Shown piece by piece: positions 1,973 through 63,975 of a stretch of DNA of 64,000 nt. Positions within the stretch are counted from its first letter, which is position 1; every line of letters begins with the position of its first letter. Origin of the DNA: Ulota crispa (taxonomy: Eukaryota > Streptophyta > Bryopsida > Orthotrichales > Orthotrichaceae). The notes below the pieces were generated by a model, which did not search any database, was not told the DNA's origin, and saw only the letters and a list, made by a program, of their open reading frames with translations. The position numbers were made by a program, and so were the translations under genes. The DNA lies in the NCBI GenBank assembly GCA_963920765.1, contig OY987248.1:18882539-18946538 (forward strand), in the 5' to 3' direction.

Positions 1973-2691
1973 TTAACCCCTGAAGGACCAAGCCCCCTTT
2001 TTGGGTTTGGGGACAAATGAGATTTCGGGCATGTACCTATGGTTAAACTACTTTGCATTGTTCTTTGAAACTTTTATGGAAGATGGGGAACTCAAAGATT
2101 TACGTGGGCATTTAATTTTTTCTTCATTCTGACATTTATTGAAGAAGTTAAAAATGAATTTTTGGGAAAAGGTTCAGATCAAGCAGCCCTAAAAATTCTT
2201 AAAAATTGCATCATAAATAAATAAAAATACAAAATAGGTTCTTTAGACTTATTTATAGGTGGGGGGTTTTAAATCATTCAATTTTCATTAATGAGATGAA
2301 AGTTATGAGAAGTTTTTGGTTGTGTGTAGGTGTGATTTTGAGAGAAACCATACCTACACATGAACAAAAACTTCTCATAATTTTCATCTCATCAATGGAA
2401 ATTGAATGATTCAAAACTTCCCACCTATAAATAAGTCTAAAGAACCTATTTCGTATTTTTATTTATTTATGATGCAATTTTTAAGAATTTTTAGGGCTGA
2501 CTGATTTGGACCTTTTCCCAGAAATTCATTTTTAACTTCCTCAGTAAATGTTAGAATGAAGAAAAAATTAAATGCCCACGTAGATCTTTGAGTTCCCCAT
2601 CTTCCATAAAAATTTCAAAAAACAACGCAGAGTAGTCTAGCCATAGGTACATGCCTGAAATCTAGGGGACAGTTGGTCGTTTAGGGGTTAA
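1973..2691. mobile_element. TTAA element, fold-back form (A-A type)
   Basis: TTAA flanks at 1,973-1,976 and 2,688-2,691 enclose 711 bases that are one large inverted repeat, with arms of about 340 bases meeting near 2,335. Both ends begin CCCC(T)(A/G)AAGGACCA-like and then run into the same inner sequence (…GGGCATGTACC…), so both arms derive from the same element end, called A here. It is non-coding. The twin copy is at 14,896-15,624. Confidence 0.8.
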
Positions 2692-4010
2692 CAAAGCACA
2701 ATGCAGGGGGCGGGGAAGCACTTTGTAAGAGTCTTGATTTGGAAAAGCTAAGCATATCACTAATTTAATATTGAATACTAAATCTGTAGGGCAAACCAAT
2801 GCTCCAACAACATCTTAAACTCATTCCAAGCCATCCACATCTCTCCAATTCTAGATTAAAGTTTAAATACTATCAGTCTTTGAACCACCACCCAATTAGT
2901 TCAACTTTTTTATTGACTGTTGCGAAGGTCAAAACTAGCTGTTACTGATTTAGTTTCACCCATGAATATCAATTCTTCTCAAACTTTCCTCCACTCTTAA
3001 ATTCATTTACTTTCAAAGTCCAACCATAATTTTTCCATTTCAAATAGATTGCTTCCTACTAGATGTTGGTTCTCCTTGGCCATTAACTTTCGCTTTTGGA
3101 AGGTAGTGAAATCTATTAATTGGTCTAGCAATTTACAACTACCAAATACGATACGGTTCTTGAGAATATTTTTTGTAGTAACTAAGAGGCTCATCAGCTT
3201 ACTCTCTTTATTGTATTTTAGAGATAGTAGAGTGGCAAAAATAAATATTATGGTGAAGCCGCATGTATGTGCATACATCTATGTCTTGGACAAAAATCGT
3301 TTGCACCTGGAAGTGTTATACGGTTTCATCTATATATCAAGCCCGGATATCAAGCCAACTTGCCAAATTTTCAAGCGACTATTTTAGCATGGTACCCACC
3401 TTCTTATTCTGTGCATTGAGGATGCTCCTACACTGCAATGGAGCATGACGTTGCAAAGGTGAAAGCAGAGCTGGATGCTGATTGTTGACCCAAACCGATT
3501 TCCCACATCAATAACAGCGGAGGCATGTTACCATGCTAATGACATGAGCTGCTGCCGAATGAGACCGCCTGTTTCTGTTGAGCTTGAATTGGCTAAAGGT
3601 CAGAGGTACGACCTCCACGTCCACGATGTTCCCCTTCCGGCCTGCTTTGGCAACAGAATTTCCAAATGCAGCATGACTGCCCCACAAGTCCAACTAATTA
3701 ATTGAACTTCCCCAAAAATAACCCACTAAACATTCTCCCTGCATGTTCTCAAAGCCGTAGCTCCACATTCTCACTTGAATGCTTCTGAAGCAAGGAGGGT
3801 AGGATAATAACATCTCCACACGGCCCACACCAGCACCAACTCTGTTGGTGCTCCAAATTGGGAGGCGGCACTAAATGCACCAGTTTTCTATTCAATCACG
3901 CCCAAATGAGGAAATTTACGCCTGCGGCAATTACAGCACTTCCAGCCTGAAAACAAGGGCCTCCAAAGTGGCAAGAATGCAAAAAAAACAAAACAAAACA
4001 ATCGGTCAGA
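2692..4010. other. Intergenic, no gene supported
   Basis: AT-rich DNA with short open frames (for example 3,049-3,387 and 3,475-3,705) that carry no recognisable motif and have no consistent splice context. Confidence 0.45.
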
Positions 4011-4019
4011 GCCTCGCAG

Positions 4020-4305
4020 TCGCAGAGTTTTATTTTTAATTTTGTCAAGGTAGAGCGACCCGCACCTCAGAATGCAGGCACGTAAGGAAAATTTAGCTAA
4101 AAGTGGAACACACGGATGATTAATAGAAGTTCATCCAAACAACTACTAACCGCTAATTTCATCCAAAATACGGCGAACTGCGTTTCCACTCAAGCAGGGA
4201 TGTGACAATTTCATCCAAATTTTCACTGGAGTTTCTCAGTGTAGTTGTCGCCATCTCACTTTTGAGGTAATATTTAGGCAAAAAATTTGCCAAAAATTAA
4301 ATGAC
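4020..4305 (+). repeat. Dispersed repeat of about 280 bases, copy 1
   Basis: It shares a series of blocks in the same order (TTTTGTCAAGGTAGAGCGACC, ACGTAAGGAAAATTTAGCTA, TTCATCCAAA, GGCAAAAAATTTGCC) with 52,985-53,270 and 54,975-55,258. The ends are T-rich at the left and GGCAA-rich at the right, but I could not fix termini or a target duplication. It is probably a short non-autonomous DNA transposon. Confidence 0.55.
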
Positions 4306-4750
4306 TCGCTGAGTCGCTGCCCAGCTTGGGAGAGATAAGCCCACGAGCTCGTGGGATGCTCAGGAAAAGGAATGTGAGCCAATGGTTGCCGGGAATGTGA
4401 TTCTTGTGCGATCCGCAAGAGCTGCGCTTGCATTAACTCAAAGCAACAGTTTGTGGGTGGAAAGGCCAGAGTGGGCCAATCTTCGCCATCGCCCCATTTA
4501 ATGCCATCTCATGTTTTAAGGGATAGTTTGAAGGAAACTGATGTAGAGTTCCTACTGTAGCATGCTGAATTAAGCTGTGCATTCGTTCCAGGAGGGTATG
4601 TCGGAGGGTATCTGCACCAACCTCTGCACACAACTATTTTGTGCTTCCGAAAATCCTAACGTGAATCCATTAAGGAAATGCTAAATTTCGAACAACCTAC
4701 TGTATGTATTGGTTTTATAACGACGAAAATTACGTAAAAATATCATATCA

Positions 4751-5162
4751 ATAAAATCAGGGAATTGATATGCGTACCACAGCTTCTTTACTATCCCACC
4801 ACACCCCGGGGTAAATTTTAGATTTCTACCATCAAGAACCTGAATTTGAGGATTTGAAATTCAGATTTGGACTCAGAGACAATGATTTTGTTTTAAATAA
4901 CAAAAAAAGTTGTAATTGAACAACACATAATGAAAAAGCTTAGCTCGGGAGAAAAGTATTACTTTTATTTTTGTTTATAAAAAAGATAAGCTTTTTCATT
5001 GGGTGTTGTTCAATTACAACTTTTTTTGTGCTTCTATTTGAGTTCAAATCTGAATTCCAAATTCTCAAATTCAGGTTCTTGATGGTAGAAATCTAAAATT
5101 TACCCCGGGGTGTGGTGGGATAGTCAATAGGTGTGGTACGCATATCAATTCCCATAAAATCA
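4751..5162. mobile_element. Mutator-like fold-back MITE with perfect 9-base duplication
   Basis: The element spans 4,760-5,153 (394 bases) and is flanked by identical 9-base direct repeats ATAAAATCA at 4,751-4,759 and 5,154-5,162. Termini are GGGAATTGATATGCGTACCA and its complement, and the arms pair over about 150-190 bases, including a palindromic CCCCGGGG block. A 9-base duplication with G-starting long inverted repeats fits a Mutator-like element. A diverged relative is at 52,715-53,405. It does not code for protein. Confidence 0.85.
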
Positions 5163-6740: not shown

Positions 6741-7665
6741 TTAACCTCTAAAGGACCAGACCCCTTTTTCAGAAACATAGCGATTTTGGGCAGGTATCTG
6801 TGATTGGAGCTTTTCATATTTTAGGCTGAAATTTTAACAGAATGTGGTAACGAGGTTTATCTTTCATATTCACTAAATTTCATGACATTTAAAATTATGA
6901 ATAAAAAGTTATGGCTGAATATGTTGTTTTTTTTTTAATATTTGTCAAGCAGCCTAGGCAGATTTTTTAAAATCACTTTTTTCAAAAACAAAATTTTTTA
7001 GATTGGTTTAGGAGATTTATGTGAATGTATGAAGCTTTGAATCATTTCGTCTAAATCAACAAGACAAAGGTTATGAGGATTTTTTATTTGTATGCAATTA
7101 TGGATTCTCTACTCCAAATTAAACTTTCAAGTCCTTTATTTTACTCAATTTTCAACATTTTGGAAAAAAACAAAACCAAAGGATGAATATTGTTTATGAC
7201 GACATTATGACCATTGGGATTGGCATTTTTCATTTCCATAATTATGTTTTTAACAATTTAGTGTTTTGAATCATTCTCTACTTCATTTTACTTACTAATT
7301 TTTTTTATATGTTATATAACTCCAAATGAGTTGAAACTTTTTTGACATGTACATACCTTAGGTGGAATAAGGAATTTAGAGAAGCACCATCCACATGGCC
7401 TTATTTCCTTAGGAATTTCACCTTCTAAAGGGTAGCCACCTGATTTTTCACAAGACATTTTTGAATATTAAAATCATTCTAACTTCCAATCTACATAGTG
7501 GAAAACTCTGAATTTTTTTCCACATCTTCTATAACCATTCTTTTACAAGATCCTACGGTCACATATGCACAAAAATGTTTTTATATTCAAATTTGTTTGA
7601 TGCTCTAAAAATGGCAATTTTGAAGAGTTTTTGGTGAAAACTTTGCATGGACTTTTAGGGGTTAA
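6741..7665 (+). mobile_element. TTAA element, subfamily II, A-to-B form
   Basis: TTAA at 6,741-6,744 and 7,662-7,665 enclose 917 bases. The left (A) end reads CCTCTAAAGGACCAGACC and the right (B) end …ACTTTTAGGGG. Only the terminal bases are inverted repeats; the interior is asymmetric and non-coding. The closest relatives are 13,391-14,305 (reverse orientation) and 39,235-40,162. The right TTAA is shared with the next element. Confidence 0.8.
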
Positions 7666-8581
7666 CCCCTAATGGCCCAAGGAACCCACTTTGGGCTTTA
7701 TGAGAACTTGGGCAGGCTCTATTGACTTCATAATTTGGAAATTTTTCATAATTTTCTTAGGATGGATGCTACTCATCATAATCTACATGTGAAGCTTTAT
7801 TTCATGTCATTTCAATAAGTAATTCAAAAGTCAGAAGGTGTTTTCAATTTCAATGTCAAATCGGGCAGCAAAAAATGTATTCTAAGTTTTTTTTTAATTT
7901 TTTTATAGAATTGTATAGATTGATACCTACTCAAAAAAAATTGAATCACTCAATTCCAAATAATGAGGTAAGAGTTACAAGGAGTTTTCTTTTGCGGGCA
8001 ATGAAGGTAGGAAGAGGGTAGAAAAAACATATAAAGTTATCTTTTACTCTCAATTTTGAAAAATTACAAATGATAATGAAAAATAAAGTTACTAATTGTC
8101 TGTTAGAGCATTCTCACCATTGGGATTAACAATTTTCAAATTGTTCCAAAACTTATTAGCATATTAGTTATATCTTTCATTCATCAATACCTTTCACTTT
8201 ACATTTTTTGTAAAAATGAATCCAATTTTTTTTTGGTTAAATTTTTTTATATATGCTTTCAAGCCATTTTCCAACATATTGCAAAAATTGCACAAGAAAT
8301 ACAACATATGTGTGTTTTTCTAAAAAGTTTGAAAATCAAAACTTCACCTTTTGGAAGGACTAGAAAAACCTACATTTTGAAATTTAGGCACATTGATTTT
8401 GCAATTGGTGGGGATATTCATTCTAAAATTTTGGGACAATGTACTTGTGCAAGTCAACCAAAGGATCCTACAATTAGATTTGTGAAAAAGTAAATTTCAA
8501 TGAAGATTTTGACCCTGGTTTGGAGACTAGTATTTTGAAGCAGTTTTGGGCCTCTAAACACAAAAGAATTTTAGGGGTTAA
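7662..8581 (+). mobile_element. TTAA element, subfamily III
   Basis: TTAA at 7,662-7,665 (shared with the preceding element) and 8,578-8,581 enclose 912 bases starting CCCCTAATGGCCCAAGG and ending …TTTTAGGGG. It is a near-colinear copy of 51,237-52,149. An open frame at 8,233-8,493 (86 codons) is also open in the other copy; see findings. Confidence 0.8.
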
Positions 8582-9337
8582 GCAGATTCAAAGGCAGATT
8601 TTCAATTCTCATTTGCTCAAAGATCCTTGGAATACTCTTCCATTCTCGTACTCCTAATCTTGAGGTTTATAATCATCCCAGCCCAGTTTTTGTCCGTCCT
8701 TTTGCGTATTTTATAAAATTCCAGGCCTCTGGGAATTTAGGTTGGGATTTGGGACCTTTACTTTCCCAAATCCATGGCAAAAACGTTTGCAACAGCGATT
8801 TAATAGGCGGCAGAGTGGGTTTTATTTATTTATTTACAGTATTTACTTACTTAAAGGCGAGTTTCACAGTTTCCTTGCTTTCATGGAGAGTCAACTCATA
8901 AGTAGAAATTTAGTTTTGACTTAAACTTAGTAGGGCAGCAAGATTTAGAGTATCTCCTTCATTTGGCTCTTTTGATGATGAGCTTCATTCCTCCATTTCC
9001 TCCCTCTTTCCTATGCCTTTTGTGGTGTAATTCTCCTGCGTGCCACAAGACCTCAATCTTCGTATTAATAATATGGTTAGAGGAACAGGCTGGCCCTCTT
9101 GACAAAGCATTCTTTGCATTAAACTAAATGTGTCCTTTTCCAACAAAAAGTAAAAAACCAAGAAAAAGAAAAGCTGTGAAGCGAAGAGCGATAAAAAAAA
9201 AAAGAGAGGGTTGTGGAAATACTGCACTCACGAAAGAAAAATATCTGGTTATTGACAACCGTGCAGCCAAAGAAATGAAATCAACTATAAATCCTTCATT
9301 AGTCCGTCCACACCCTTACAAGCAAAATTTAACTTGC
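8582..9337. other. Intergenic, no gene supported
   Basis: Contains a TTTATTTATTTAC-type AT-rich patch near 8,820-8,850 and a Lys/Arg-rich short open frame at 9,128-9,340 with no recognisable family. I see nothing else. Confidence 0.4.
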
Positions 9338-9656
9338 TAAGGGCATCTCCACCAGTCCAGGCTTTTTCAAAGTTTTCATCTGGTTTGGCAAAGCCTCAAG
9401 GCTCTCAATCTCCACCCATGCTCTTTAAAAAGGTGGCCTTGCACTCCAACATGTCCCATAAATAAGCAGTTGATCACTTATCAAAAGAAGTAGAGGATAA
9501 AGCTCACTAAACTTAATGTGAATATTGAGTGAATAGTGGCTTGAAGAGTGGCTTGCTAGACTTGCTATATCAAAGTGTTTGAGAGGGTTTTGAGAGGGGC
9601 CTCAACACTTTTCATCCACTTTGAGCAAACCAGAGTCACTAGTGGATATGCCCTAA
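9338..9656 (+). mobile_element. Harbinger-like MITE with GGGCATCTCCACC termini, copy 1
   Basis: The element at 9,341-9,653 (313 bases) has inverted termini GGGCATCTCCACCAG / CTAGTGGATATGCCC and TAA on each side (9,338-9,340, 9,654-9,656). Termini of this type with a TAA duplication are common among plant Tourist-like MITEs. Copies lie at 34,322-34,635 (inverted) and 35,476-35,775. Confidence 0.75.
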
Positions 9657-9920: not shown

Positions 9921-10423
9921 GTTAGGAAAATCTCAACCTCAAACTTCAACACCATGTGATTTAAACCCCTAAGGGCCCAAGCCTTTTTTTGTGAAAGTCA
10001 CTAAAAACTGCCACTTTTGGGGGAAGGAGTAGAAAAATAGGAAAAAAAGTTTTTGAAAATTGAATCATAAGATCTTTCCCTAGACTATGGGAGGTACTTG
10101 TGGGAAAAAAATCACCTCATTCTAGAGGTAGAAGAGTAAGATATATATTGACAATGGAAGTGACAAAAAAAAATTCCTTGCTACCCACCAAAAATTCAAA
10201 AGCCTTTGACCACTCTTACATCAAAAAAAATGCTCGATGCAAAGTTGAGGTTTGATTGTTCTACGTAAAGACCAAGTTAGGTATATGTTGGTGGAGTATT
10301 TTCAAATCAATCAAAGGTGTACAAAATACTTTAAAAAATCTTTAAATGGCGGAAGGTCATGAAATTTGCAAGTACATTTGATATAATTGGGGGCTTTATA
10401 TAAAACTCAAAAATTCAAGTCAT

Positions 10424-11163
10424 GGGTAGTTGCAAGAAACACTTCATTGTTTTGTCTCAAACACCCTTAAAACCGGTAGAACTGGGTAGTACTATGAGCT
10501 TTTGAAATAATTGTTTTCTAAATAAAATAAAATATGGAAAATTTGTAGAGCACTCAAAATAGCACACTTGAGAAAATTTAGACCTAGAAAAATGTTATTC
10601 TAAAAGTTGTGCACACAAATAGAGGGCCAGAAATTACCAACAAAAAGACAATTTCTTTTTTGCTATTTAGAAAATAGTAAAAAAATTCAAAGAAATTTTA
10701 AAAAAAATGTCCATTTTTTACCTCTTTGAGTAGCTTCACCTGATGCAAGTGGTTTTTGTAGGAAGATTTTTTTTTTCACCAATCATTCAAAAAAGGATGC
10801 CCACTTTGAGGGTGTGTGCACAGCATGGAATTTAGAATTTTATAAAACCCTTCTACATATCCATGTAATGCTCTATGATGAACAACTACCCTGCTTTGTG
10901 GCATGAGATTTGCTTTTTTGGACCCAAAATATTACTAAAAATCCCCGAAATGGCCAAGGTAGATACTTATTTGGAGGCTGTTCAAAAATAGTAAAATAAT
11001 TTTAAAAAAAATTCAAAAATTATAGAAGGTTTGTAACTATGACATGTACCTTCCTCTGAAAATTTAGCTCAAAAGAACTTGCTGTGCAAAAGTTACAAGC
11101 CAAAAAGCACTTGCAAGAGGTGACGGGGACAAAAAATAGTACAAGTGTTTCTTGCAATCACCC
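10424..11163. mobile_element. Nested element with GGGT(A/G)TTGCAAGAAACACTT inverted ends
   Basis: Positions 10,424-10,444 and 11,143-11,163 are inverted copies, both containing TTGCAAGAAACACTT. Weaker pairing continues inward. No clear target duplication was found. It is non-coding. Confidence 0.55.
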
Positions 11164-11312
11164 TCACATTGATGAAAACAGAGAAAACCAAAGATCCTTA
11201 GCCTATGACAACTTAAGTAAAAAATTAATCAAAAAATTCATACTCAAATAGCTTAAAAAACTAAAGCACCAAATTTAACAAGGGGCAAAAGGAATGGAGA
11301 ACGTGTTATTCA

Positions 11313-11589
11313 TTAATTTGGGAAAATGATGGGTACCATTTTGTACGTCACCTTAATCCAAAATAGTCACCTTAATTCAAATTCAGGAGGTCACATTAAA
11401 CCTAGTTAATGAATTTTTGTCCAAAATTTCAGAAGTTAGTGAACTTTCTGTCCAAAAAGAGCGTATTTTTGGAAGATGTGTATCTCATTTCATTGGAAAA
11501 CAATCAATGGATTCCCATTCAATGAGTATGGCAATCTCTGGAAAAAAAAGAGCAAGAAATCCCACTTTGTATGTTTTATCCCAAATTAA
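11313..11589. mobile_element. MITE of the AATTTGGGAAAA family, copy 2
   Basis: The left end ATTAATTTGGGAAAATGAT and right end GTTTTATCCCAAATTAA are inverted, and the adjoining block (GTACGTCACCTTAATCC) matches the complement of the right part of 6,019-6,247. The element is degraded and its duplication is unclear. Confidence 0.5.
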
Positions 11590-11623
11590 CAAATAATGCA
11601 TTAGAGGTTTGAACATCATATTT

Positions 11624-11857
11624 GTTAAATTGGGGAAAAGAGTACATATTGGGACTTTCAAAGGTTTTAGGTGGTCACCTCAAACCGAACTCGCAGCGTA
11701 TTTTTTGGTACACGTGCCCTCACCTGAGAGGGGGAATTTGCAAGGGAAAAAATCTTAGTGGCTCATACTGAATCCGATACCTTCGAATTTGGTTAAAGGT
11801 AACTTTTTGGGTTTAAGGTGGAGTACAAAATGGTACCTCTGGTTTTCCCAATTTAAC
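11624..11857. mobile_element. MITE of the AATTTGGGAAAA family, copy 3
   Basis: The termini GTTAAATTGGGGAAAAGAG and GGTTTTCCCAATTTAAC are inverted; the interior (TTTTTTGGTACACGTG, ACTGAATCCGATAC) is colinear with 6,019-6,247. Confidence 0.65.
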
Positions 11858-12198
11858 AAACATGGTGTTTTTGGGAGTCCCCCAATATGGGCACCTTCCA
11901 CTCCACTCCCCTTTGTCCAAGTATCGTTCACACCTTGTGCCACAAGGGTTGTGGAGTCAACACCCACTTATAGAGGAGTGGCCTTGCCCAAACTGCCCCT
12001 GCTTGCCATGCTTTAAAACATTCTAGATAACTTCTTCATCAAATGTTCAACTATAGAAAAAATTAGATGTTTGCACAAGTCTTGGAATTCCTTACCTTCA
12101 ATAAAAGTTTTAAAAAATCACACAAACTAGTTTAGCTATTGGTACATGCCTAAAGTTTGTTTGTCCCTTAAGGGGACAGTTGGGCCTTTAGGGGTTAA

Positions 12199-13386: not shown

Positions 13387-14309
13387 TTAACCCCTAAAGG
13401 ACCAAGCAAAGTTTTCACCAAAAACCGAGCCAAAAACTCTTCAAAACTGCCATTTTTAGAGCATCAACCAGATTTGAAAACAAAAACATTTTTATGCATA
13501 TGTGACCATAGGATCTTGTAGAAGAATGGTTATAGAAGATGTGGAAAAAATTTCAGAGTTTTTCACCACTGGATTGGAAGTTAGAATGGTTTGAATATTC
13601 AAAAACGTCTTGTGAAAACCCAGGCAGCTACCCTTCAGAAGGTGAAATTCCTAAGGAAATAAGGCCATGTGGGCGGTGCTTCTCTAGATTCCACATCCCA
13701 CCTAAGGTATGTACATGTCAAAAAAGTTTCAACTCATTTGGAGTTGTATAACATATGGAAAAAAATTAGTAAGCAAAAAGAAGTAGAGAATGATTCAAAA
13801 CACTAAATTGTTAAGAATTTAATTATGGAAAGAAAAATGCCAATTCCAATGGTCATAATGTTGTCATAAACAATATTCATCCTTTGGTTTTGCTTTTTTT
13901 CCAAAATGTTGAAAATTGAGTAAAATAAAGGACTTGAAAGTTTAATTTGGAGTAGAGAATCCATAATTGCACGCAAACAAGAAATCCTCATAACCTTCGT
14001 CTTGTTGATCTAGACGAAATGATTCAAAGCTTCATACATTCACATAAATCTCCTAAACCAATTTGAAAATTTTGTTTTTTAAAAAAGGAATTTTTAAAAA
14101 TCTGCCTAAGCTGCTCACCGAATGTAAAAAACAACATGTTAGGCCATAATTTTTTACTCATAATTCCAAATGTTATGAAATTTAGTGCATAAACCTCGTC
14201 CCCACATTCTATTAAAATTTCAACCTAAAATATGAAAAGCTGCAATCACAGGTACCTGCCCAAAATCGCTATGTTTCTCAAGAAGGGGGTTTGGTCCATG
14301 AGGGGTTAA
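13387..14309 (-). mobile_element. TTAA element, subfamily II, reverse orientation
   Basis: TTAA at 13,387-13,390 and 14,306-14,309 enclose 915 bases. The left (B) end is CCCCTAAAGGACCAAGC and the right (A) end …TTGGTCCATGAGGGG. It is colinear, reversed, with 6,745-7,661 and 39,235-40,162. Confidence 0.8.
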
Positions 14310-14895: not shown

Positions 14896-15624
14896 TTAAC
14901 CCCTAAAGGACCAAGGGCCCTTTTGGGGGACAAATGGGATTTTTGGGCATGTACTTATGACTAAACTACTTTGCGTGATTTTCTGAAACTTTTATTGAAG
15001 GTGAGGAATTCAAAAATCTATGTAGGAATGTGATTTGTTCTTCATTCTGACATTTATTGAAGAAGCTAAAAATGAATTTGTGGAAAACATGGGACTCCGG
15101 GCAGCCCAAAAACTTCTTTGAAAATTGCATTTTTTTCAAATAAAAATCTGAAATAGGTTCTTTAGATATATATAGACTTGGGGAGCTTTGGATCATTCAA
15201 TTTTGATAAATGAAATGAAAGTTATGAGAAGTTTTAGTTTGCGGTCAGGTGTGGTTTCTCTTGAAATCACACCTACCCACAAACTAAAACTTCTCATAAC
15301 TTTCATCTCATTTATCAAAATTGAATGATCCAAAACTCCCCAAGTCTATATAAGTCTAAAGAACCTATTTCAGATTTTTGTTTGAAAAAAATGAAAATTT
15401 CAAAGAAGTTTTTGGGCTGCCCGGAGTCCCTTGTTTTTCAATTATTCATTTTTAGCTTTTTCAATAAATGTTAGAATGAAGAGCAAATTACATTCCCATG
15501 TAGATCTTTGAATTCCTCACCTTCAATAAAAGTTTTAGAAAATCACGCAAAGTGGTTTAGCCATAAGTACATGCCCGAAATCCCATTCGTCCCCCCCAAG
15601 GGACAATGGTGCTTTAGGGGTTAA
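14896..15624. mobile_element. TTAA element, fold-back form (A-A type), second copy
   Basis: TTAA at 14,896-14,899 and 15,621-15,624 enclose 721 bases forming one long inverted repeat centred near 15,258. Both ends are A ends (CCCCTAAAGGACCA… and its complement). Pairing is closer than in the copy at 1,977-2,687, so this one looks younger. Confidence 0.85.
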
Positions 15625-32504: not shown

Positions 32505-33417
32505 TTAACCCCTAAATCCCTGAGTGTCCCCTCGAGGGACAAATGGGATTTTGGGCAGGTACCTACAGCTTCAATTGAAACTTTTTTTGAAGATAGGAAA
32601 ACACATTAGCTTTTGGAGAATATAATTTTTATTCCAATCAATGCCCAAAAGCAAAAGTTATGCCTAGATAAGAAATTATTTATGCAAATTGGGCAACAAA
32701 AAAAATTTACAAAAACTTTAATTTTTTTTATTTTTGATTTTTTCCTCATAGGTTATAGTTTTGTCTACATCTGAAGCTTTGATCCATTCCATTTGGACTA
32801 GTTATGAGAAAGTTATGGACAATCTTGTTTTTTGGGCAGTTCAAGCATCTTTTTGAAAAGATAACTTATAAACTTCATTTTTGAATGCATGTTTAACATT
32901 TTTTCAAAAACAATTGTTGGAAAGGATGAAGTTTGCTTGCTAGAACAATCTCACCATCAGGATTATTGAGTTTCAATTCTATTGCAAGTTTATTTACAAT
33001 TTAAGTTTTTGTTCAATCTCATACCTTCTTCTACCTAATATTTTTTTAAGAATGAAAATTAAGTATTTTTTGTTTTTATTTTTTTCTAAATATTCTCAAC
33101 TCAATTTCCCACCTTAAAAAAATAAACCTCAAAACTCTGAGGTGCAAAAAATTTAAGTTAAAAAAGTTCAAAGTCAAATAGTTAATCATGCAAAGTGCAA
33201 AAAAGTCTATTTTTTACACTTTGAATGCATATATCTTGCAATCTATGTAGTTAAAGTTTTTGAATTTTTGTTTCCACATTCTTATACTAGTTTAGTACAA
33301 GATCCTACAGTTAGATATGCAAAAAGACCAATTTTCAAAAAAATTACTCTTTACAATAGAAATGACAATTTTGAGTGTTTTTTGACAAAATAAAGGCCCC
33401 AACAATTTAGGGGTTAA
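32505..33417 (+). mobile_element. TTAA element, separate A-to-B subfamily
   Basis: TTAA at 32,505-32,508 and 33,414-33,417 enclose 905 bases. The left end CCCCTAAATCCCTGAGTGTC then GGGCAGGTACC matches A ends; the right part (GAAATGACAATTTTGAGTG) matches B ends. It is more diverged than the other copies. Confidence 0.75.
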
Positions 33418-38159: not shown

Positions 38160-39234
38160 TTAATCTAAAGGACCATTGTCCCTTTGGAGGACAAATCGGA
38201 TTTTGGGCATGTACCTTTGGATAAGCTACTTTGTGTCATTTCTTGAAACTTTTATTGAAGGTGGGGAATTCAAAAATCTACATGAGCATCTAATTTTTTC
38301 TTCATTTTGACATTTGACAAAAAAATTATACATGAGTTTATCAAAACTAGGGGAGGAAGGGCAATTTGAGCAGCTGAAAAAACTTCTTTAAAAATTGTGT
38401 TTTTTAAAAATAAAAATTTGGAATTGGTTCTTTAGATTTTTTTGTAAGTGAGCAGCTTTAAATCATTCAATTTCAATCAATGCCATGAAAGTTATAAGGA
38501 TTTTTTGTTTGCGGGCAATTATAAATTCTCTACTCTAAAATAAACTTTGAAGTCCTTTACTTCACTCAATTTTCAATATTTTGGAAAATAAATTAAACCA
38601 AAGGAAGTAGATTGTTTATTACACTACAAGGAAACCATGGTCAAATCTACAAAAAGTTGACAAAGATTGTGACCTAATCTATAGTATACTATAGATTAGG
38701 TCACAATCTTTGTCAACTTTTTGTAGATTTGACCATGGTTTCCTTGTAGTGTTACAACACTATGACAATTGGGATTTGCATTTTCCATTTCAATAATTAA
38801 ATGCTTAACAATTTAGTGTTGTGACTCATTCTCTACTTCTTTTTACTTACTATTTTTTCCCATGTCTTGTATAGTTCCAATTGATTTGAAAATTCTCCCA
38901 CACATACCTAAATTGATCTCCTACATGGAAAATAAAAGCATAACTTTGGGTAGAGCAACTTTTTTCATGTAAAAGTGGTCAAAGGCTTTTGAAAAATATT
39001 GGTAGCAAGGAAAAAAACTTCTATCCTTCACTTTAGATGTAAATATCTCCCTCCTCTTCATCTAGAATGACCAAATTTTTTTCCCATCAATACCTCTTCT
39101 AGTCTAAGGCAAGATCCTACATTTGGATTTTCAAAAAAATAAAAATAAAAATCTACCTTTTTACTCATCCCCTAGAAGTGACAGGTTTCAATGATTTTGG
39201 CAAAAAATAAAGGACTTCTTCCTTTAAGGGTCAA
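38160..39234 (+). mobile_element. TTAA element, A-to-B form, carrying a nested CACTA palindrome
   Basis: TTAA at 38,160-38,163 is followed by TCTAAAGGACCATTG, so part of the CCCC start is lost. The right end meets the next element at TCAA (39,231-39,234), a one-base variant of TTAA. It is 1,067 bases, about 934 without the nested insert at 38,622-38,751. Confidence 0.7.
38619..38754. mobile_element. Perfect 130-base CACTA-type palindrome
   Basis: Positions 38,622-38,751 are two 65-base arms that are exact reverse complements with no spacer (centre between 38,686 and 38,687). The ends are CACTACAAGGAAACC, close to the CACTACAAGAAA terminus of plant CACTA (CMC/En-Spm) elements, and TTA flanks both sides (38,619-38,621; 38,752-38,754) as expected of their 3-base duplication. 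No mismatch is visible between the arms, so it is a young insertion or is kept identical by repair. Confidence 0.9.
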
Positions 39235-40166
39235 CCCCTAAAGGACCAGACCTCCTTTTTTAGCAGCATAACAATTTTGGGCAAGTACCTATGGTTGGAG
39301 CTTTTCATATTTTAGGCTAAAATTTTAATAGAATGGAGGGACAAGGTTTCTCTTTTATATGTACTAAATTTCATGACATTTGGAATTATGAGTAAAAAGT
39401 TATGGCCTAGTATGTTGTTTTTTACATTTGTCAGGTAGCCTCGGCAGATTTTTAAAAATCACTTTTTCTAAAAACAAAAGTTTTAAATTGGTTTAGGAGA
39501 TTTACATGAATGTAGGAAGCTTTGAATCATTCTGTTTTGACCAACAAGATGAAAGTTATGAGGATTTTTTGTTTGCAGGCAGTTATGGATTCTCTACTCC
39601 AAATTAAACTTTCAAGTCCTTTATGTTACTCAATTTTCAACATTTTGGAAAAAAAAACAAAACCAAAAAATGTAGATTGTTTATTACAACATTATGACCA
39701 TTGGAATTGGCATTTTTCATTTCCATAATTAAATTCTTAACAATTTAGTGTTTTGAATCATTCTCTACTTCTTTTTGCTTACTAATTTTTTTCCATATGT
39801 TATACAACTCCAAATGAGTTGAAATTTTTTTGACATGTACTTTACTAAGGTGGAATAAGGAATTTAGAGAAGTACCACCCACACATCCTTTTTTCCTTAA
39901 GAATTTCACCTTTTGAAGGGTAGCTGCCCGGTTTTTCACAAGACGTCTTTGAATATTCAAACCATTCTACCTTCCAATCCACATGGTGGAAAACTCTGAA
40001 ATTTTTTCCACATCTTCCAAAACTATTCTTCTACAAGATCCTATAGTCACATATGCATAAAAAAAATTTTGTGGTTCAAATTTGGTTAATGCTCTAAAAA
40101 TGGCAGTTTTGAAGAGTTTTTGACTCGGTTTTTGGTGAAAACTTTGCTTGGTCCTTTAGGGATTAA
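39231..40166 (+). mobile_element. TTAA element, subfamily II, A-to-B form
   Basis: It starts CCCCTAAAGGACCAGACC after TCAA and ends CTTGGTCCTTTAGGGA before TTAA (40,163-40,166); 928 bases. Colinear with 6,745-7,661. It abuts the preceding element through the shared target site. Confidence 0.8.
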
Positions 40167-40347: not shown

Positions 40348-40427
40348 TCAACCCCTAAATACCCACAGTGCCGGATTCCCAATGCTAAAAACACCACGTT
40401 CTGGTGTCGTGGGCATTTAGGGGTTAA
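40348..40427. mobile_element. 72-base mini TTAA element
   Basis: Between TCAA (40,348-40,351) and TTAA (40,424-40,427) lie only 72 bases with inverted ends CCCCTAAATACCCACAG / GTCGTGGGCATTTAGGGG. It keeps nothing but termini, so it may mark the minimum DNA that was moved. Confidence 0.7.
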
Positions 40428-48126: not shown

Positions 48127-48759
48127 TTAACCCTTGAGCGCCCACGCCATTTTCACCAAAATGAGGTTTTTGGGAGACCTACAATTTTCATGTATTGTAT
48201 CTTAGTCAATTCAATGATTCACAAAAAGTGGCCACTCAAAATAGTGGAATATCTACTTAGAAAATGGCTTGCAAATTTTGGTAACAATTGACTGTGGGAG
48301 ATGGGAGATTATAACATTTGATCAAACAACTTGTGATGGCAAATTTTTATTTTGGCAAGTATTTGCTATTCAATGATTTTTACAAAATTTGATAAGCCCT
48401 CAAAGTAAATCTCCTCATAACTTTCATCTCACTTATCAAAATTGAATGATTCAAAGTTCTCCACGTATATTTAAATCTAAAGAACCAATTTCAAAAATAA
48501 AAATAAAAAACATATAATTTTTAAAGAAGTTTTTGTGCTGCCCAAGTTGCTTAATAAGCAAAGAAAACTACATATCATACACTAACATTTGAACCATAAA
48601 GTCAAAAGTTATGAAGACTATTGGACCTTAAAGCTAAGTACTCCTTGGACACATCATGTGTGAAAATTTCAAAGAAAACAAATGAAACACCCATTTGTAG
48701 TGAGCTGACCAAAATTGCTATGTTGCCAAAAAAACTCTCCTTAGGGCTTTAGGGGTTAA
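48127..48759 (+). mobile_element. TTAA element, GAGCGC-type start
   Basis: TTAA at 48,127-48,130 and 48,756-48,759 enclose 625 bases starting CCCTTGAGCGCCCACGCC and ending GGCTTTAGGGG. An inner block (CTCATAACTTTCATCTCA…) is shared with the arms of the fold-back elements at 1,977 and 14,900, linking this subfamily to the others. Confidence 0.7.
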
Positions 48760-48994
48760 CCCCTGAGCGCCTAGAGAAAGTTATTTTAGGGTTTAGGAGA
48801 AAATGGGGGGTTTAATGGCTACCACAGCTTGGAAAATTACATCCAGAAAAATTGATTGCAGGATTTGAAAAAGGACTACCTTTGCTGATGGGGACCAACC
48901 ATGATTGTTTTCACCGTACGGATTGAGAGAAAAAGTGAGATAAAGTTTGTGGGCCCATCAACAGTATAATGTCAACCGGGCACTTAGGGATTAA
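48756..48994. mobile_element. Short TTAA element next to the previous one
   Basis: 231 bases between the shared TTAA (48,756-48,759) and TTAA at 48,991-48,994, starting CCCCTGAGCGCCTAGAG and ending GGGCACTTAGGGA. Confidence 0.65.
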
Positions 48995-51232: not shown

Positions 51233-52153
51233 TTAACCCCTAACGGCCCAAGGAGCTCACTTTGGGCTTTATGAGAACTCGGGTAGGCTCTATTGACTTC
51301 ATAATTTGGAAATTTTTCATGAAATTTTTAGGATGGATGTTACTCATCAAAATTTACATGTGAAGTTTTATTTCATGTCATTCTGATAAATAATGCAAAA
51401 GTTATAAGGTTTTTTCAATTTCAATGTCAAACCGGGCAGCAAAAAATATATTTTAAATTTTAAATTTTTATATTTACATAATTGTATAGAATGATACCTA
51501 CTCAAAAAAAATTGAATCACTCAATTCCAAATAATGAGGTAAGAGTTAAAAGGAGTTTTATTTTGCAAGCAATGAACGTAGGAAGAGGGTAGAAAAAACA
51601 TATAAAGCTATCTTTTACTCTCAATTTTGAAAATTTTCAAATGAAAATGAAAAATAAAGTTACTAATTGTCTGTTAGAGCATTCTCACCATTGGGATTAA
51701 CGATTTTCAAATTCTTCCAAAACTTATTAACATATTAGTTATACATGTCATTCATCAATACCTTTCACTTTACAACTTTTGTAAAAATGACTCCAAAGTT
51801 TTTTTTGGTTAAGTTTTTTTATTTATGCTTTCAATCCATTTTCCAACATATTGCAAAAATTGCACAAGAAATACAACATACATGTTTTTCTCCAAAAAGT
51901 TTGAAAAACAAAACTTCACCTTCTAGAAGGACTAGAAAAGCCTACAATTTGAAGTTTAGGCACATTGATCTTGCAATTGGTGGGGATATTCATTTTGAAA
52001 TTTTGGAACAATGTACTTGTGCAAGTCAACTAAAGGATCTTATGGTTGGATTTGTGAAAAAGTAAGTTTCAATGAAGATTTTGACCTTGGTTTGGGGACT
52101 AGTATTTTGAAGCGGTTTTGGGCCTCTAAACACAAAAGAATTTTAGGGGTTAA
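51233..52153 (+). mobile_element. TTAA element, subfamily III, second copy
   Basis: TTAA at 51,233-51,236 and 52,150-52,153 enclose 913 bases, almost the same length as, and colinear with, 7,666-8,577. The start is CCCCTAACGGCCCAAGG, the end TTTTAGGGG. The open frame at 51,745-52,065 overlaps the equivalent of 8,233-8,493. Confidence 0.85.
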
Positions 52154-52712: not shown

Positions 52713-52714
52713 AA

Positions 52715-54668: not shown

Positions 54669-54699
54669 TGTTGTTGGACGTGTTGATGGAAATAGGCAG

Positions 54700-54960: not shown

Positions 54961-54974
54961 ATGAATACTTATTA

Positions 54975-56373: not shown

Positions 56374-59197
56374 ATGGCGTCTCTTTGGAGGCGAGAGGAT
56401 TACGACGTCGTGAAGCACGACAAGTGTTTCTCCGACTGGAAGGTGAGCACACCACTTGTCGAATCGATCAACATTTGATTTGTTTGGCGCTTAAATTTTC
56501 TTGAATTTTGAATTTTGAATTAGTATCTGGGCGGGCGCGGGCGCGGGCGGGAGTTTTGACTGAAGTGGCGGGGTTGGTGGCTCAGATTCTGGTAAGTCCT
56601 TCCGACTGGAAAGAGCACCCGGTGGGGAGAGAAGGAGGCGAGCGGTTCCGGTCTCGCAATCTGCCCAGCCCGCATGTCGGGTCTGGGGTGTATGAGCTTG
56701 GGGTTACAGTACCTGCTTGGAAAGCACTGGATCTCAACGACGGTCGGAGTTTGACATCCGGGGACGTCATTGTCGTGTACGTCGGCCATGCTGATCACAT
56801 CCGCAAACGGTTGCAGCGGTATGGCCAAGCGGGCGCTCATCTCGAAGGCTCAAGGTAAACTTTCGCAACCTAACTTCCTAAATCACGCTTCTCTTCTTAT
56901 TCTAGATCATAGAAGTGAAGAACGGCAATCGAGATCGTTCTCGCTTGTCAACTTGAACGCTTTGTCAGTCACATCAGAGAGATCAGAGTTCAAGAACACA
57001 CGAGATGTTATAAAATTAATAGACAAAATGCAAAGCTGGTTATTAAAAACGTAGTCTACAAATTGGAGTTTGAAATGTTCAACCTGTCTTCGTTACAATC
57101 CTCTGGTTCCGTGAGGTATTAATTTATCTAAAATTTGATAGATGTGAAGAACGGCATTCGAGATCGTTCTCGCTTGTCAATTTGAACGCTTTTCCAACGC
57201 TTGTCAGTTACATCTGAGGCATTATAGTTTAAGAACACACGAGGTGTTGAAGATTAGTATACAAAATGTGAAGCTGGTTATCAAAAATGTAATCTACAAA
57301 GTACAAACTGGAGTTTGAAATGTTCGTTACAATCCTTTGGTTCCGTGAGTACTCCTGTTTTTCTGTATCATAGAAGTGAAGAACGGCAGTCGAGATCGTT
57401 CTCCCTTGTCAACTTGAACGTTTTTCTAACGTTTGTCAGTTACATCTGCGAGATTAGAGTTCAAGAACACACGAGATGTCGAAAATTAGTGTATAGAATG
57501 CAAAGCTGGTTATTAAAAACGTAGTCTACAAACTGGAGTTTGAGACGTTCGACCGTTACAATCCTCTGGTTTCGGAGGCATCTAAAATTTGATATGGATC
57601 TCTTTAGTTACGGTTCGCTCTGTGGAATCTTTGCAGATCTCCAAAGTCGCCAATGTCTAGGAAGGATCATACAATTACGATTTCCGAGCCGAGCTTCGCA
57701 CAATTTGAAGGCATGCGAATTAGTTGTGGTGAAGAGCATCTTAACAAATATAGCCAGTCAGCAACGTTGGAGGACAGGAACTTCCGATTTGGTGGCAAGA
57801 GGAGCAGCAGATTGGATAAGCAAGTGAGCATTCCTGAGAATCGCACTTCCGTGCCTGAGTTGGCTCCTGCTAGACAACCACCGCGTGGGCCTCGGCTGTT
57901 TTCTGAGGTTTTTGCAATGGGATGCTCGATAGCGTATCGATGGGCGTCGGTAAGATTATTTTCCAGCATTTGTCAAATTGTGGAATCGTTGTAGGCAACC
58001 TCAGATTAGTGGACTTGGTTGCTGTTGCGTTTGCTGAGCTACACCAGAAGCTGCAATTCGCATAAATGGACAATGATTCTGCTTAGTCGGATGAGGGTCA
58101 TTGGAAAGGTGCTAATGCCGTGCGTTGTGCAGACCAGAAGCAAAGAGGTAGCCGAGAACGTGGTATCAGATTTAACGGAAGCCTTCGACTATGCCTGGAA
58201 TAGGGGAGCGAATTCGCATGCGCGGGCTCAAGACATCCTTGCGAAAATTGTGTTTGGCAAACGAGGATCGTACACGCCCTGCTGTTCTAAGAGCAGCTCA
58301 AAATGGGCAGGGTTTCCATTCATGAGAAAGGGCGTCGGTATCAGGATTGCGGCGCACAGACCGGCAGAGGGGAAGGTGCGGAGGTTGCCAGGGCAGAGAA
58401 ATGGACGCGGTTTATTCATGTTACTGAAAAAGAGCCCGCGTTTGATGATCATCGGTGGGAAGTCTACAAAGCATCGTGAATTCACCAAAATAGATATTCC
58501 TGTAGATCGGTGCGGTGTGCTGTTAGAAAACGGACTCGCATGCAATGCTCTACCTCAGAAGGGTCGCAAACGATGTCTCTTGCACATGGATGCCAAGAAG
58601 CCGAGTCGAAGAAAGTCATCACAGGTAGCTTCTCAGGATTCAAGGAGCGGGAGCTTAGCCAGTGACCCGGCCAGCGTTGATTCTCGAAACAGCTTGTCAT
58701 TACCCCCGAGAGCTCCAGGCTCATGTTTCCCCATCCGAGTTCCTAAAAAGCCGACCACGCCGCAAGAACCGAAAAGGAGAGGAAGTGTTTCTTTCAGCAC
58801 GTGGTTAAGCAGGTCCGAGATTCTGAAGGCGAAGAGCGTGGAATGGTTGCTGGCAATGGAGGAAATCAAGGGTAAAGGAGGCAATGTCAACAACCCCTAC
58901 AACGATATCAGCACATCGCCGATTCTGAAGCCCGTGATTCTCTCACCTGATGTCAGTCCCATTGAAGAGCCAAGTCTAGTGCGAGTGAACAGAGTCTCAC
59001 TCAATATTAGTCGTGGTATGGAGCGAGATCAGCCAACTGATCATGATGACATGAATTACGTTCCGAAAGTGGACAATGGCATGCCATACTCAATTGTGTC
59101 ACGAAGATCACCCGTTCGGTGGCCTCCAGCTCCTTCGAGAGACGCATATGCTACCAGCTACAACTCCCCCCAGTTTCCTAGGTTAAGCTTCTCATGA
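56374..59197 (+). CDS. ET: EFFECTOR OF TRANSCRIPTION (ET) family protein, GIY-YIG-like domain
   Basis: Exons 56,374-56,442, 56,586-56,854, 57,637-57,949 and 58,133-59,197 join in phase (GT-AG) to 571 residues. The start follows the family pattern: REDY, VKHD and FSDWK, then SPSDWKEHPVGREG. A GIY-YIG-like fold is marked by GVYELG (57-62), VVYVGHAD (86-93) and the Arg-rich RKRLQRYG that follows. Exon 3 ends in the family phrase SIAYRWAS and exon 4 opens with TEAFDYAWNRG. One ET cysteine motif is visible, C344-x9-C354-x10-C365-x2-H368, containing KGRKRC. The last 190 residues are Ser/Pro-rich and probably disordered. ET proteins are plant-specific nuclear regulators linked to gibberellin response and cell differentiation; single-strand DNA cutting has been reported for Arabidopsis ET2. 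Intron 2 carries three 230-base repeats. Confidence 0.85.
56902..57580 (+). repeat. Three tandem units of about 230 bases in ET intron 2
   Basis: Units begin at about 56,904, 57,138 and 57,367 with GAAGTGAAGAACGGCA(A/G)TCGA-like sequence. They continue through TCGTTCTCGCTTGTCAACTTG and CAAGAACACACGAG to a shared AAACTGGAGTTTGA end. Units 1 and 3 are closest. They fill most of the intron. Confidence 0.85.
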
Positions 59198-61492: not shown

Positions 61493-62558
61493 GTGAGCAG
61501 GTGATTGGGCCTGTCTGGGCTCTGTTAATAAACTCCACTTTCGGCACCGGCGGTGCACTTGTGCACGTTCTCAACCATCTCTGTTGAAACAAAATAGTAG
61601 TTCCAAGTTATTCCTACGCTCCTTGTGAGTGGACATGGATGTGTGAGGATATGGTGTGATGTGGCTTTTACAAGAATTTCAAAGTATGTACTGTACAGTT
61701 AGAGATTGTTCTCTTTAGGAAGGATGCTTGTGAAAGGGAGTATGATATTGTGTTGTCCCTTCCATTATTGAAATGGATCCTGGAAGCTTTCTGGCTGCTA
61801 CAAGTTTTATGTAGAGCCGTTGAAATCAACAGCTTCTTTTATTTTTTACGTGTCATTACATGCTTGAAGTGTCTTTTGAGTTTTGTGTTGGAATTTGTTT
61901 ATTCATTTATGCATGAACTGCCGGTTTGAAACCTTCTAACATATGAAAGTACTGCATGATTCGAGATCTTGTATGAGATCCTTCAAGAGTGCAGATTAGA
62001 ATGTTATGGTGTCGCCATGTGAACAATAGTTGTAGCTTTGAAGGCCTTTTCTGGTTTTCAATAATTTCGTAAAAAAGTGAGTACTCATAAGTGCTGAGCA
62101 GTTGTACACACTGGAAATCTACTAGATATAATTTCACTCGTGTTCAACAAGATCTTCAATTAATTGTTCATATCTCCTTCAAATCTTGAATTTTTTCCAT
62201 ATAAGTTAGTGACAGGTCTTACGTACAGTGGGGTTCTGAATGTATTTGCATGTATATGAAACACGTGCGCATATACAGCATGGAATAATAATATTTTGAT
62301 GTTAGTTATGATTGGAAACATGGTTGTTTTTTCTTAAAGTTGGTATCCATTATACCAGGAATTGGGAAACCAACCATCCGAACATTTAATACTCGTTGCT
62401 GTGCCATATTTTGTTAATGAAAACAGTAAAAAAAGGTTAATTTGAGAACGTCATCGTGGTATATGTGGACTTGTCACAACCATAATGTTTTGTTTTGAAC
62501 TGTATAAAATTCTATTGAAAAGGGCATTCGGAAGTGGCAGTGGGGAGTCAATGAAAAA
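61493..62558. other. Downstream of PMP3, no gene supported
   Basis: Probably the PMP3 3' end followed by AT-rich intergenic DNA. Short frames only. Confidence 0.4.
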
Positions 62559-62684
62559 CATAATCCCCATATTCGATCAATATGGAGTTGACAGTTGAAT
62601 ATGGAGTGTATCTGTACATTGCGTTGATTTAGATGTATTTCATATTTAATTGACAATTCCATATTGATTGAATATGGGGTTATA
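62559..62684. repeat. Hairpin-forming inverted repeat
   Basis: The left arm (CATAATCCCCATATTCGATC, AATATGGAGTTGACAG) pairs with the right arm (AATTGACAATTCCATATTG, ATTGAATATGGGGTTAT) over about 43 bases with a few mismatches and a loop of about 40 bases. Most likely a small MITE; no target duplication is evident. Confidence 0.6.
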
Positions 62685-62858
62685 AGCAATATAGAAGCTG
62701 TAATTTTTTAAATATTACAAACTCTTTATTGGTGTATAAAAATTCACTTTAGAATATATCACATTGGAATATTATGGAATTGATTAGTCACTAAGTATTG
62801 TAGATTTGAAGTTTTGTTGTGTCTGTGGTTGTATTTACGAGTATTTGTCACATTTATA

Positions 62859-63975
62859 TTAACCTCTAAAGGACCATTGTCCTTACAAGGGACAAATGGG
62901 ATTTTGGGCATGTACCTATAGTAAACTATTTTGTGTGATTTTTTGAAACTTTTATTGAAGATGTGGAATTCAAAAACCTACATGAGAATCTATTTTTTAT
63001 TTCAATCTGACATTTTATGAAGAAACTTTGCTAGATTGGGCAGTTCGGGCAACACCTTCCTAGTGTACTGAAGAGTTGACCACAAGTTTGGGCAACTTGC
63101 ATGGGCAGGAATTTTAGTTTCAGTGGGCAGATTTTGTACGGGCTCTATTTTAATCACTCGGCCTGACAGTATGATCCAAGTGGGAGGCGGGGTGGGTGGG
63201 AACTTTGGGTGCCGAGGGGTGGGAACTTTGGGCACACTTTTGGGAACGCTGGGAGTACGCGCATGAGAGCGCTGAGAGCATGGCCACATTTAGAAAATTT
63301 TGCAGCTGCAGACCCCTCCAGCTGAAATAGGGACCTTTGGAATATGGGAATTGTCAGAATCACAGGGAGGGGAGAATGGGCCCGTGACATGGATTCCAAA
63401 ACCCTACATTCCACTTGCCCCATGCGGAAAACTAGTGTTTCATTGTTTTTAGTGAACTATACAAGTTTTTTTTGTTTTTATTTTTTCTAGTGGTAATATA
63501 CTAATATCACTATGTTTTGACCAATGCGATTCGTGTGATTTATTTTTTTGAATTTTACACAATGCTTCTAGTTTCGTGTAGGGTATATGCAAATTTCATT
63601 ACTTTGTGGCATTGTAAGATTTTACAAAGTATGATGGACACCTTCAATTGCATTGAAAATTTGATCTTCTACATGAAAAAAATAAACCTCAACTTTGCAT
63701 AGAGCAAATTTTTTTATCAATGGTCAAAGGCTTTTTAAAATTTTGGGCAGTAAGGAAAAAAACTTATTTTTCCACTTTAGATGTCAATAACTTCCTCCTT
63801 TACATCCAAAAGGACTTGAAAAATTTCCCACAAGTACCTCTAGTAGTTTAGTGCAAGATCCTAGAGTTGGATTTTCAAGAAAATACAATTTTTATGCCTT
63901 TCTCCTCATTCCCTCAAAAGTGGCAGTTTTCAATAATTTTCACAAAAAAAAAAGGCTTGGTCCTTTAGGGGTTAA
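62859..63975 (+). mobile_element. TTAA element, A-to-B form, with GC-rich internal insert
   Basis: TTAA at 62,859-62,862 and 63,972-63,975 enclose 1,109 bases. The left end CCTCTAAAGGACCATTG and the complement of the right end, CCCCTAAAGGACCAAGC, show the 14-base inverted terminus well. 63,045-63,430 is GC-rich and unlike any other copy in the window. Confidence 0.8.

What the first reader, a model, noticed from the sequence alone, without database searches (positions are those of the whole stretch)
1973..63975. A swarm of TTAA-flanked, piggyBac-like short transposons in a plant genome
About 15 elements share 14-base inverted ends (CCCCTAAAGGACCA and variants) and lie exactly between TTAA sites at both ends. 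The base outside the central TA is T on the left and A on the right in nearly every copy, which argues for a 4-base TTAA duplication rather than a TA one. TTAA with CCC-starting termini is the mark of piggyBac-type DNA transposons, which to my knowledge are scarcely known from land plants. They make up about 12 kb of this window, none codes for a transposase, and most are 0.6-1.1 kb. An active source element should exist elsewhere in the genome.
Basis: partly seen in the sequence, partly recalled or inferred. Interest (0 to 1): 0.9.

Follow-up and report, generated by a model that had tools for sequence, protein, structure and literature searches.

The report
TTAA-targeting piggyBac-like plant miniature transposons
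A stretch of plant DNA is littered with short, apparently gene-less jumping elements that sit at TTAA sites and have ends built much like those of the animal transposon piggyBac, a type rarely documented in land plants; the enzyme that moved them was not found here.

Summary
Fourteen paired elements (12,257 bp) share CCCCTAAA-type inverted ends, and 23 of 28 ends abut an intact TTAA. Sibling copies are 88-91% identical up to the TTAA and mostly unlike outside it, so these are mobile elements. They form about six groups with two end types, L and R. Homology inside the tip was confirmed by leave-one-group-out searches for L ends in 4 of 6 groups and for R ends in 2 of 5. The ends resemble piggyBac termini far more than Kolobok ones, but the strict CC[C/T]T start is met by only 2 of 28 (23 start CCC, mostly CCCC). 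An inverted repeat just inside the 14-bp tip peaks where piggyBac has its transposase-binding palindrome. Best reading: non-autonomous piggyBac-like elements (0.65). Membership is unproven: no transposase was seen, no host genome is held and no empty site was found. TTAA targeting is shown; a 4-base stagger is not. The copies are old, so an active source is not implied. Two elements are L-L palindromes whose arms are more alike within each element (89-90%) than between elements (76-79%), which suggests arm homogenisation near insertion. PiggyBac has been annotated in plants before.

The parts
1973..2691 (+). E1, L-L palindromic element with both TTAA (element 1977-2687)
6741..7665 (+). E2, group B, L to R
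7662..8581 (+). E3, group C, shares its left TTAA with E2
9962..12198 (-). E4, group A ends around a 2.2 kb interior that holds other repeats; left site reads TAAA (or TTAA plus one A)
13387..14309 (-). E5, group B
14896..15624 (+). E6, L-L palindromic element
32505..33417 (+). E12, own group; L and R ends found by profiles made without it
38160..39234 (+). E7, group A, left tip decayed, right site TCAA shared with E8; carries a nested 130-bp CACTA-like palindrome
39231..40166 (+). E8, group B
40348..40427 (.). E13, 72-bp mini element, TCAA / TTAA
48127..48759 (-). E9, divergent member
48756..48994 (.). E9b, 231-bp member sharing its left TTAA with E9
51233..52153 (+). E10, group C
62859..63975 (+). 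E11, group A
68..85 (-). unpaired end of a possible further element running off the window
38176..38194 (+). example of the inverted repeat at bp 15-33 of an L end (TTGTCC-N7-GGACAA, E7)

Best explanation
The elements are old, non-autonomous (MITE-like) cut-and-paste transposons that were moved in trans by a transposase of the piggyBac type. SHOWN: they sit at TTAA; copy boundaries lie at the TTAA; most have a 14-bp inverted tip starting CCC; an inverted repeat lies just inside the tip (within bp 15-36) in part of the ends; there are two end types, L and R; no transposase domain appears in the reading frames tested. INFERRED: a transposase dimer grips the outer 14-16 bp of both ends, a second DNA-binding module binds the inner palindrome (as the cysteine-rich domain of piggyBac does at bp 17-33), the ends are cut at TTAA and joined to a new TTAA. 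Insertions sometimes chose the TTAA beside an older copy, giving three abutting pairs that share one TTAA-type site. In two elements the L half has become a near-perfect L-L palindrome, with the arms made alike at about the time of insertion.
For: 14 paired elements, 23 of 28 ends TTAA; the deviant sites TCAA and TAAA are also reported for some piggyBac elements (PMC10813416, passages). Sibling copies align up to the TTAA: E2/E5/E8 88-91%, E3/E10 91%, with 13-22 of 56 flank positions matching in these groups. Profiles of the subterminal DNA (tip removed) made without one group recover L ends of the palindromic, A, E12 and B groups at E 3e-20 to 2e-5, and R ends of B and E12 at 3e-5 to 1e-10. 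A matrix from 14 published coral piggyBac/CMITE ends puts 27 of 28 ends in the top 0.9% of 689 other TTAA-adjacent 13-mers (E7L 7.6%); a Kolobok matrix from 10 Xenopus ends places none better than 22%. Kolobok is RR...YY (PMC9587614). The inverted-repeat score at offset 15, over 24 ends (E9b and E13 left out), exceeds all 260 offsets from 40 to 299 by four measures, clade-averaged too; piggyBac has its palindromic transposase-binding repeat at bp 17-33 and asymmetric ends (PMC7351741, passages). Coral piggyBac MITEs also form tandem arrays (PMC2872659, passages); here 3 abutting pairs against 0.67 expected, P 0.024 in a simple simulation.
Against: No transposase in 10 of 31 element ORFs of 55 aa or more, nor in the 21 of 47 window ORFs of 110 aa or more that were scanned; the rest were not scanned. 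No genome is held, so no full-length relative; no empty site in the window. The rule CC[C/T]T at bp 1-4 is met at 2 of 28 ends; CCCT stands at bp 2-5 in 23, and the 5' motifs listed for animal piggyBac (CACTA, CCCTC, CCCTT, CCCAT) do not include CCCCT, though coral families have it. The matrix test is partly circular, because the elements were found by their CCCC tips and the coral matrix is dominated by CCC. The palindrome idea came after looking, and related ends are not independent; only 7 of 28 ends have 6 of 6 pairs, and L ends of B and E9, both ends of E1 and E6L show 4 or fewer. L and R inner repeats differ in sequence. Leave-one-out fails for L ends of C and the R end of E9, and is weak for E9L (0.03), R ends of A (0.02, 0.06, 4.7) and of C (0.03, 1.6; an unrelated place scored 0.03 in the same run). 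L-L elements evidently moved here, whereas LE/LE piggyBac is inactive in cells.
Confidence: 0.65

Rival explanations
1. Moved by a Sola-type transposase (Sola3 is recalled to use TTAA), a superfamily reported from the moss Physcomitrella.
For: Sola has 4-bp TSDs and very variable termini and occurs in some plants (PMC10741241, passage); the fern table lists more Sola (2,739) than PiggyBac (1,230) elements.
Against: CCC starts with TTAA and the place of the inner palindrome match piggyBac. I could not compare with Sola3 ends: the describing paper is not held.
Confidence: 0.14
2. Tc1/mariner-type elements with TA duplication, ends beginning ACCCC, and a strong preference for TTAA.
For: Sequence and empty site would be identical to the TTAA reading; Tc1/mariner with TA TSD occurs in plants (PMC10741241).
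Against: Would need near-absolute choice of T and A outside TA (23 of 28 ends TTAA). Known plant Stowaway ends (CTCCCTCC, recalled) do not resemble these.
Confidence: 0.09
3. Kolobok superfamily (also TTAA).
For: TTAA TSD (PMC9587614, passages).
Against: Kolobok ends are 5'-RR...YY-3'; these start with pyrimidines in 27 of 28 ends; Kolobok matrix ranks are ordinary for all 28. The plants listed in that passage are chlorophytes and rhodophytes.
Confidence: 0.03
4. An undescribed plant superfamily with TTAA targeting that only converges on piggyBac-like ends.
For: No transposase seen; the strict piggyBac start is met at 2 of 28 ends; in the passages I saw, a 207-genome plant MITE survey sorts MITEs into five superfamilies plus a special group, without a TTAA class (PMC12550479).
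Against: Target, tip length, CCC start and inner palindrome all point to a known family.
Confidence: 0.08

Closest known systems
Coral CMITEs and AmiPB piggyBac-like elements (PMC2872659, passages seen)
   Same: TTAA, 13-14 bp ends such as CCCCTCAGTGTCCG or CCCTTTATGGACC (AmiPB2 right end, reversed), non-coding, tandem arrays, interiors mostly unlike the autonomous elements
   Different: CMITEs are about 100 bp with a conserved 75-bp core; these are mostly 0.6-1.1 kb, AT-rich, in a plant, with L-L palindromes
piggyBac of Trichoplusia ni (PMC7351741, passages seen)
   Same: TTAA, outer ~16 bp plus palindromic inner repeat at bp 17-33, unequal left and right ends
   Different: inner repeats of L and R differ in sequence here; symmetric L-L elements evidently moved; no transposase gene seen
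Xenopus T2-MITE / Kolobok (PMC6004289, passages seen)
   Same: TTAA-flanked MITEs
   Different: ends begin AG/RR, not CCC
PiggyBac entries of Ceratopteris (PMC6890710 table, passage seen)
   Same: PiggyBac-class repeats annotated in a seed-free plant
   Different: a count in a table; no structure described in the passage

Membership tests
piggyBac superfamily (as MITEs) | TTAA target | tested here: met
   23 of 28 ends TTAA
piggyBac superfamily (as MITEs) | 4-bp duplication with 4-nt stagger | not testable with these tools
   indistinguishable from a TA stagger at TTAA; no empty site in window, no genome held
piggyBac superfamily (as MITEs) | 12-19 bp TIR with terminal motif CC[C/T]T (as worded in PMC2872659) | tested here: inconclusive
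   TIR length met; motif at bp 1-4 in 2 of 28 ends, CCCT at bp 2-5 in 23, CCC start in 23. Read strictly it is not met; coral families III and IV (right end), which that paper places with piggyBac, also begin CCCC
piggyBac superfamily (as MITEs) | palindromic inner repeat at bp 17-33 and asymmetric ends (T. ni element) | tested here: inconclusive
   peak at offset 15, L/R types; not in every end type; known for T. ni piggyBac, not shown to define the superfamily
piggyBac superfamily (as MITEs) | related autonomous element with DDE_Tnp_1_7 transposase | not testable with these tools
   no host genome held; none in the ORFs scanned
Kolobok | 5'-RR...YY-3' termini | tested here: not met
   27 of 28 ends start with pyrimidines; matrix
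Tc1/mariner (Stowaway) | TA duplication with free outer bases | tested here: not met
   outer bases T and A in 23 of 28 ends; a TTAA-preferring mariner is not excluded
Sola3 | TTAA with Sola3-type ends and transposase | not testable with these tools
   no Sola3 end sequences found, founding paper not held

The most novel reading that the evidence does not exclude
A land-plant lineage keeps its own piggyBac-type system whose transposase accepts symmetric L-L ends, and its foldback elements are re-made as near-perfect palindromes around each transposition (copy-back from one half, or conversion through a hairpin). Two such elements, folded at the same homologous place, each have arms more alike within the element than between elements.
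Probability: 0.2. Interest if true: 0.65.

Novelty: new variant of a known kind. Interest (0 to 1): 0.5.

Why it matters
In the passages I saw, a large plant MITE survey uses five superfamilies plus a special group (PMC12550479), and a plant annotation guide does not contain the word piggyBac (PMC10741241), so swarms like this could be misfiled. Here they make up about 19% of a 64 kb plant window. If the source is a piggyBac transposase, a superfamily best known from animals extends to a land plant and offers a plant-adapted TTAA system. The L-L palindromes give a natural test of whether unequal ends are required.

Tried and rejected
Whole-genome search for longer copies: no genome is held. 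Exact 18-base end in viral contigs: 0 hits. Rfam: nothing at gathering thresholds. Empty sites inside the window, by joining the two flanks of 14 elements, 3 abutting pairs and 2 G-ended candidates: the five spanning hits were trivial ones at the element's own locus, where the neighbour or the element supplies the same tip. Transposase remnants: none in the ORFs scanned. Weak matches below the curated cut-offs, taken as chance: SCAMP (E 8e-4) in an E3 ORF and absent from the related ORF of E10, Zemlya (0.007) and Peptidase_C98 (0.17), Inj_translocase (0.009). Palindromic-tetramer control: TTAA gave 16 end pairs matching at 11 of 14 or more, several of them nested, cross-paired or low-complexity; AATT gave 22, whose nature I did not examine. 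This count does not single out TTAA and I do not rely on it. PIF/Harbinger (3-bp TSD) and Mutator (7-12 bp) were dropped because the shared flank is 4 bases (sequence; TSD lengths). Literature: 10 searches; among the papers listed (lists are capped and ranked) none was seen to describe TTAA MITEs of a bryophyte, fern or lycophyte in detail; most subscription papers are not held. Of the 15 papers opened I saw passages only.

I also corrected the nested palindrome to 130 bp at 38622-38751.
Full report
OBSERVATION. The 14-mer CCCCTAAAGGACCA with up to 3 mismatches occurs 28 times on the two strands of the window, against a mean of 4.4 in 100 shuffles and never more than 10. Extending from these hits and from TTAA sites followed by CCC-like bases, I pair 14 elements: E1 1977-2687, E2 6745-7661, E3 7666-8577, E4 9966-12194, E5 13391-14305, E6 14900-15620, E12 32509-33413, E7 38162-39230, E8 39235-40162, E13 40352-40423, E9 48131-48755, E9b 48760-48990, E10 51237-52149 and E11 62863-63971, 12,257 bp together. 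A further end at 81 would run off the window. Of 28 ends 23 abut TTAA; the others read TCAA (2), TTGA (1, the E7/E8 site from the other side), TAAA (1) and TCTT (1). E4's left end can be read as TTAA plus one A, and E7's as TTAA with the first two bases of the tip lost (sequence).

THEY ARE MOBILE ELEMENTS. Self-comparison shows copies starting and ending at or close to the TTAA: E2/E5 6741-7665 with 14309-13387; E3/E10 7662-8581 with 51233-52153. Identity is E2/E5 91.2%, E2/E8 87.7%, E5/E8 89.7%, E3/E10 91.0%, E1/E6 77.8%; E4, E7 and E11 align to each other at only 56-61% over about 1 kb. The 56 bases outside the TTAA match at 12-26 positions over all pairs compared, 22 or fewer except one. 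Transitions exceed transversions (58 to 21 in E2/E5). Sibling divergence near 10% means the burst is not recent.

END ANATOMY. Aligned ends are of two types. L ends carry a block like TTTTGGGCAKGTACCTATGG some 40-60 bp in; R ends of groups A, B and E12 carry forms of AAAACTGCCAYTTTT. With the TTAA and the 14-bp tip removed, profiles made without one group still find the L ends of the palindromic pair (E 5e-20 to 1e-14), of A (3e-20 to 1e-14), E12 (8e-11), B (3e-8 to 2e-5) and, weakly, E9 (0.03); the C pair is not found. For R ends, B is found at 2e-6 to 3e-5 and E12 at 1e-10; A (0.02, 0.06, 4.7) and C (0.03, 1.6) are weak and E9 is not found. So homology beyond the tip is clear in 4 of 6 groups for L and 2 of 5 for R. 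E9b and E13 were not in this test.

TTAA OR TA. The outer T and A show that the target is TTAA. They cannot show a 4-base stagger: an element ACCCC...GGGGT inserted with a TA duplication into TTAA leaves the same letters and the same empty site.

WHICH SUPERFAMILY. TTAA is used by piggyBac and Kolobok; Kolobok termini are RR...YY (PMC9587614, passages), piggyBac generally CC[C/T]T (PMC2872659, passages). A matrix of 14 published piggyBac-type ends ranks 27 of the 28 ends within the top 0.9% of 689 other TTAA-adjacent 13-mers; the Kolobok matrix gives them ordinary ranks. This is partly circular, since the elements were picked by their CCCC start. Read strictly, CC[C/T]T at bp 1-4 holds for 2 of 28 ends; 23 start CCC, and 23 have CCCT at bp 2-5. 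Coral families III and IV also show CCCC ends, but the motifs listed for animal piggyBac do not include CCCCT (PMC10813416, passages).

INNER PALINDROME. A feature not used to pick the elements is an inverted repeat just inside the tip: TTGTCC-N7-GGACAA at bp 15-33 in E7, with forms of it in E11, E12 and E4. Six of six arm pairs match in 7 of 28 ends, against 0.016 per random place. Scanning 24 ends (E9b and E13 left out), offset 15 beats all 260 offsets from 40 to 299 by each of four measures, including the average over clades. In T. ni piggyBac a 19-bp palindromic repeat, bp 17-33, binds the cysteine-rich domain, and left and right ends are unequal (PMC7351741, passages). The match in place is striking, but I noticed it before testing it, and several end types lack it.

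ABUTTING PAIRS. E2/E3, E7/E8 and E9/E9b each share a single TTAA-type site. A simple simulation expects 0.67 such pairs and gives P 0.024 for three or more. Coral piggyBac MITEs also form tandem arrays.

PALINDROMES. E1 and E6 are foldbacks with 319 and 340-bp arms, both ends of type L. Their centres fall at the same homologous place within a few bases. Arms within E1 are 89.0% and within E6 89.7% identical, between elements 76-79%. Of the informative sites 41 group arms by element, and 1 and 1 by cross pairing. Divergence between the arms of one element is similar to that between siblings of the other groups. So at about the time of insertion each palindrome probably had nearly identical arms, although the two lineages had already parted: homogenisation of a shared palindrome, or separate re-making, followed by decay (inference). 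The outermost part of the arms, about bp 15-45, differs and seems not to have been homogenised.

NO TRANSPOSASE SEEN. Ten of 31 element ORFs of 55 aa or more, and 21 of 47 window ORFs of 110 aa or more, were scanned with Pfam; no transposase was found. Host genes seen are NPH3, EamA, GIY-YIG and Cupin_5.

LITERATURE (passages only). PiggyBac is tabulated in a fern genome (1,230 copies, 122 kb; PMC6890710) and listed among angiosperm MITE superfamilies in a review (PMC10004981). A plant guide speaks of nine superfamilies of DNA transposons in plants and does not contain the word piggyBac (PMC10741241); a 207-genome MITE survey uses five superfamilies plus a special group (PMC12550479). So the type is little described in plants, but not new.

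VERDICT. Real and well ordered, and best read as piggyBac-like MITEs; membership unproven without the transposase. Interest 0.5.

Noticed in passing
49901-50571 and 26891-27284: Two further TTAA-flanked candidates with G-starting ends: GGTGGGCATACMCAT (14 of 15 matching between its ends) and GGTAGNANCACCCAT (13 of 15). Their four ends are the only ones of 26 hits of the shared pattern that abut TTAA. RR...YY ends would suit Kolobok, though the Xenopus Kolobok matrix gives them ordinary ranks.
   Followed up: partly
38622-38751 (inside E7): A nested 130-bp palindrome with CACTACAAGGAAA ends flanked by TTA on both sides; E8 shows the uninterrupted site with a single TTA. It looks like a CACTA-type MITE (name recalled).
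   Followed up: partly
4787-5127: Foldback with 96-bp and 46-bp arms (93% complementary each), outer ends near TCCCACCACACCCC; related segments lie at 52766-52968 and 53273-53358.
   Followed up: no
34311-35784 and 9324-9792: Another repeat family, with inverted arms 34321-34609 / 35501-35776 and a copy at 9324-9662; no Pfam domain in its ORF 34965-35303.
   Followed up: no
56891-57594: Tandem array of a 232-bp unit, 2.4 copies, between ORFs that match the GIY-YIG model, so probably intronic.
   Followed up: no
27288-27391, 22946-22990: Single ends resembling the R profile weakly (E 0.27 and 0.06), the first beginning TTAACCCCTAAGCGCTC, without a partner found.
   Followed up: partly
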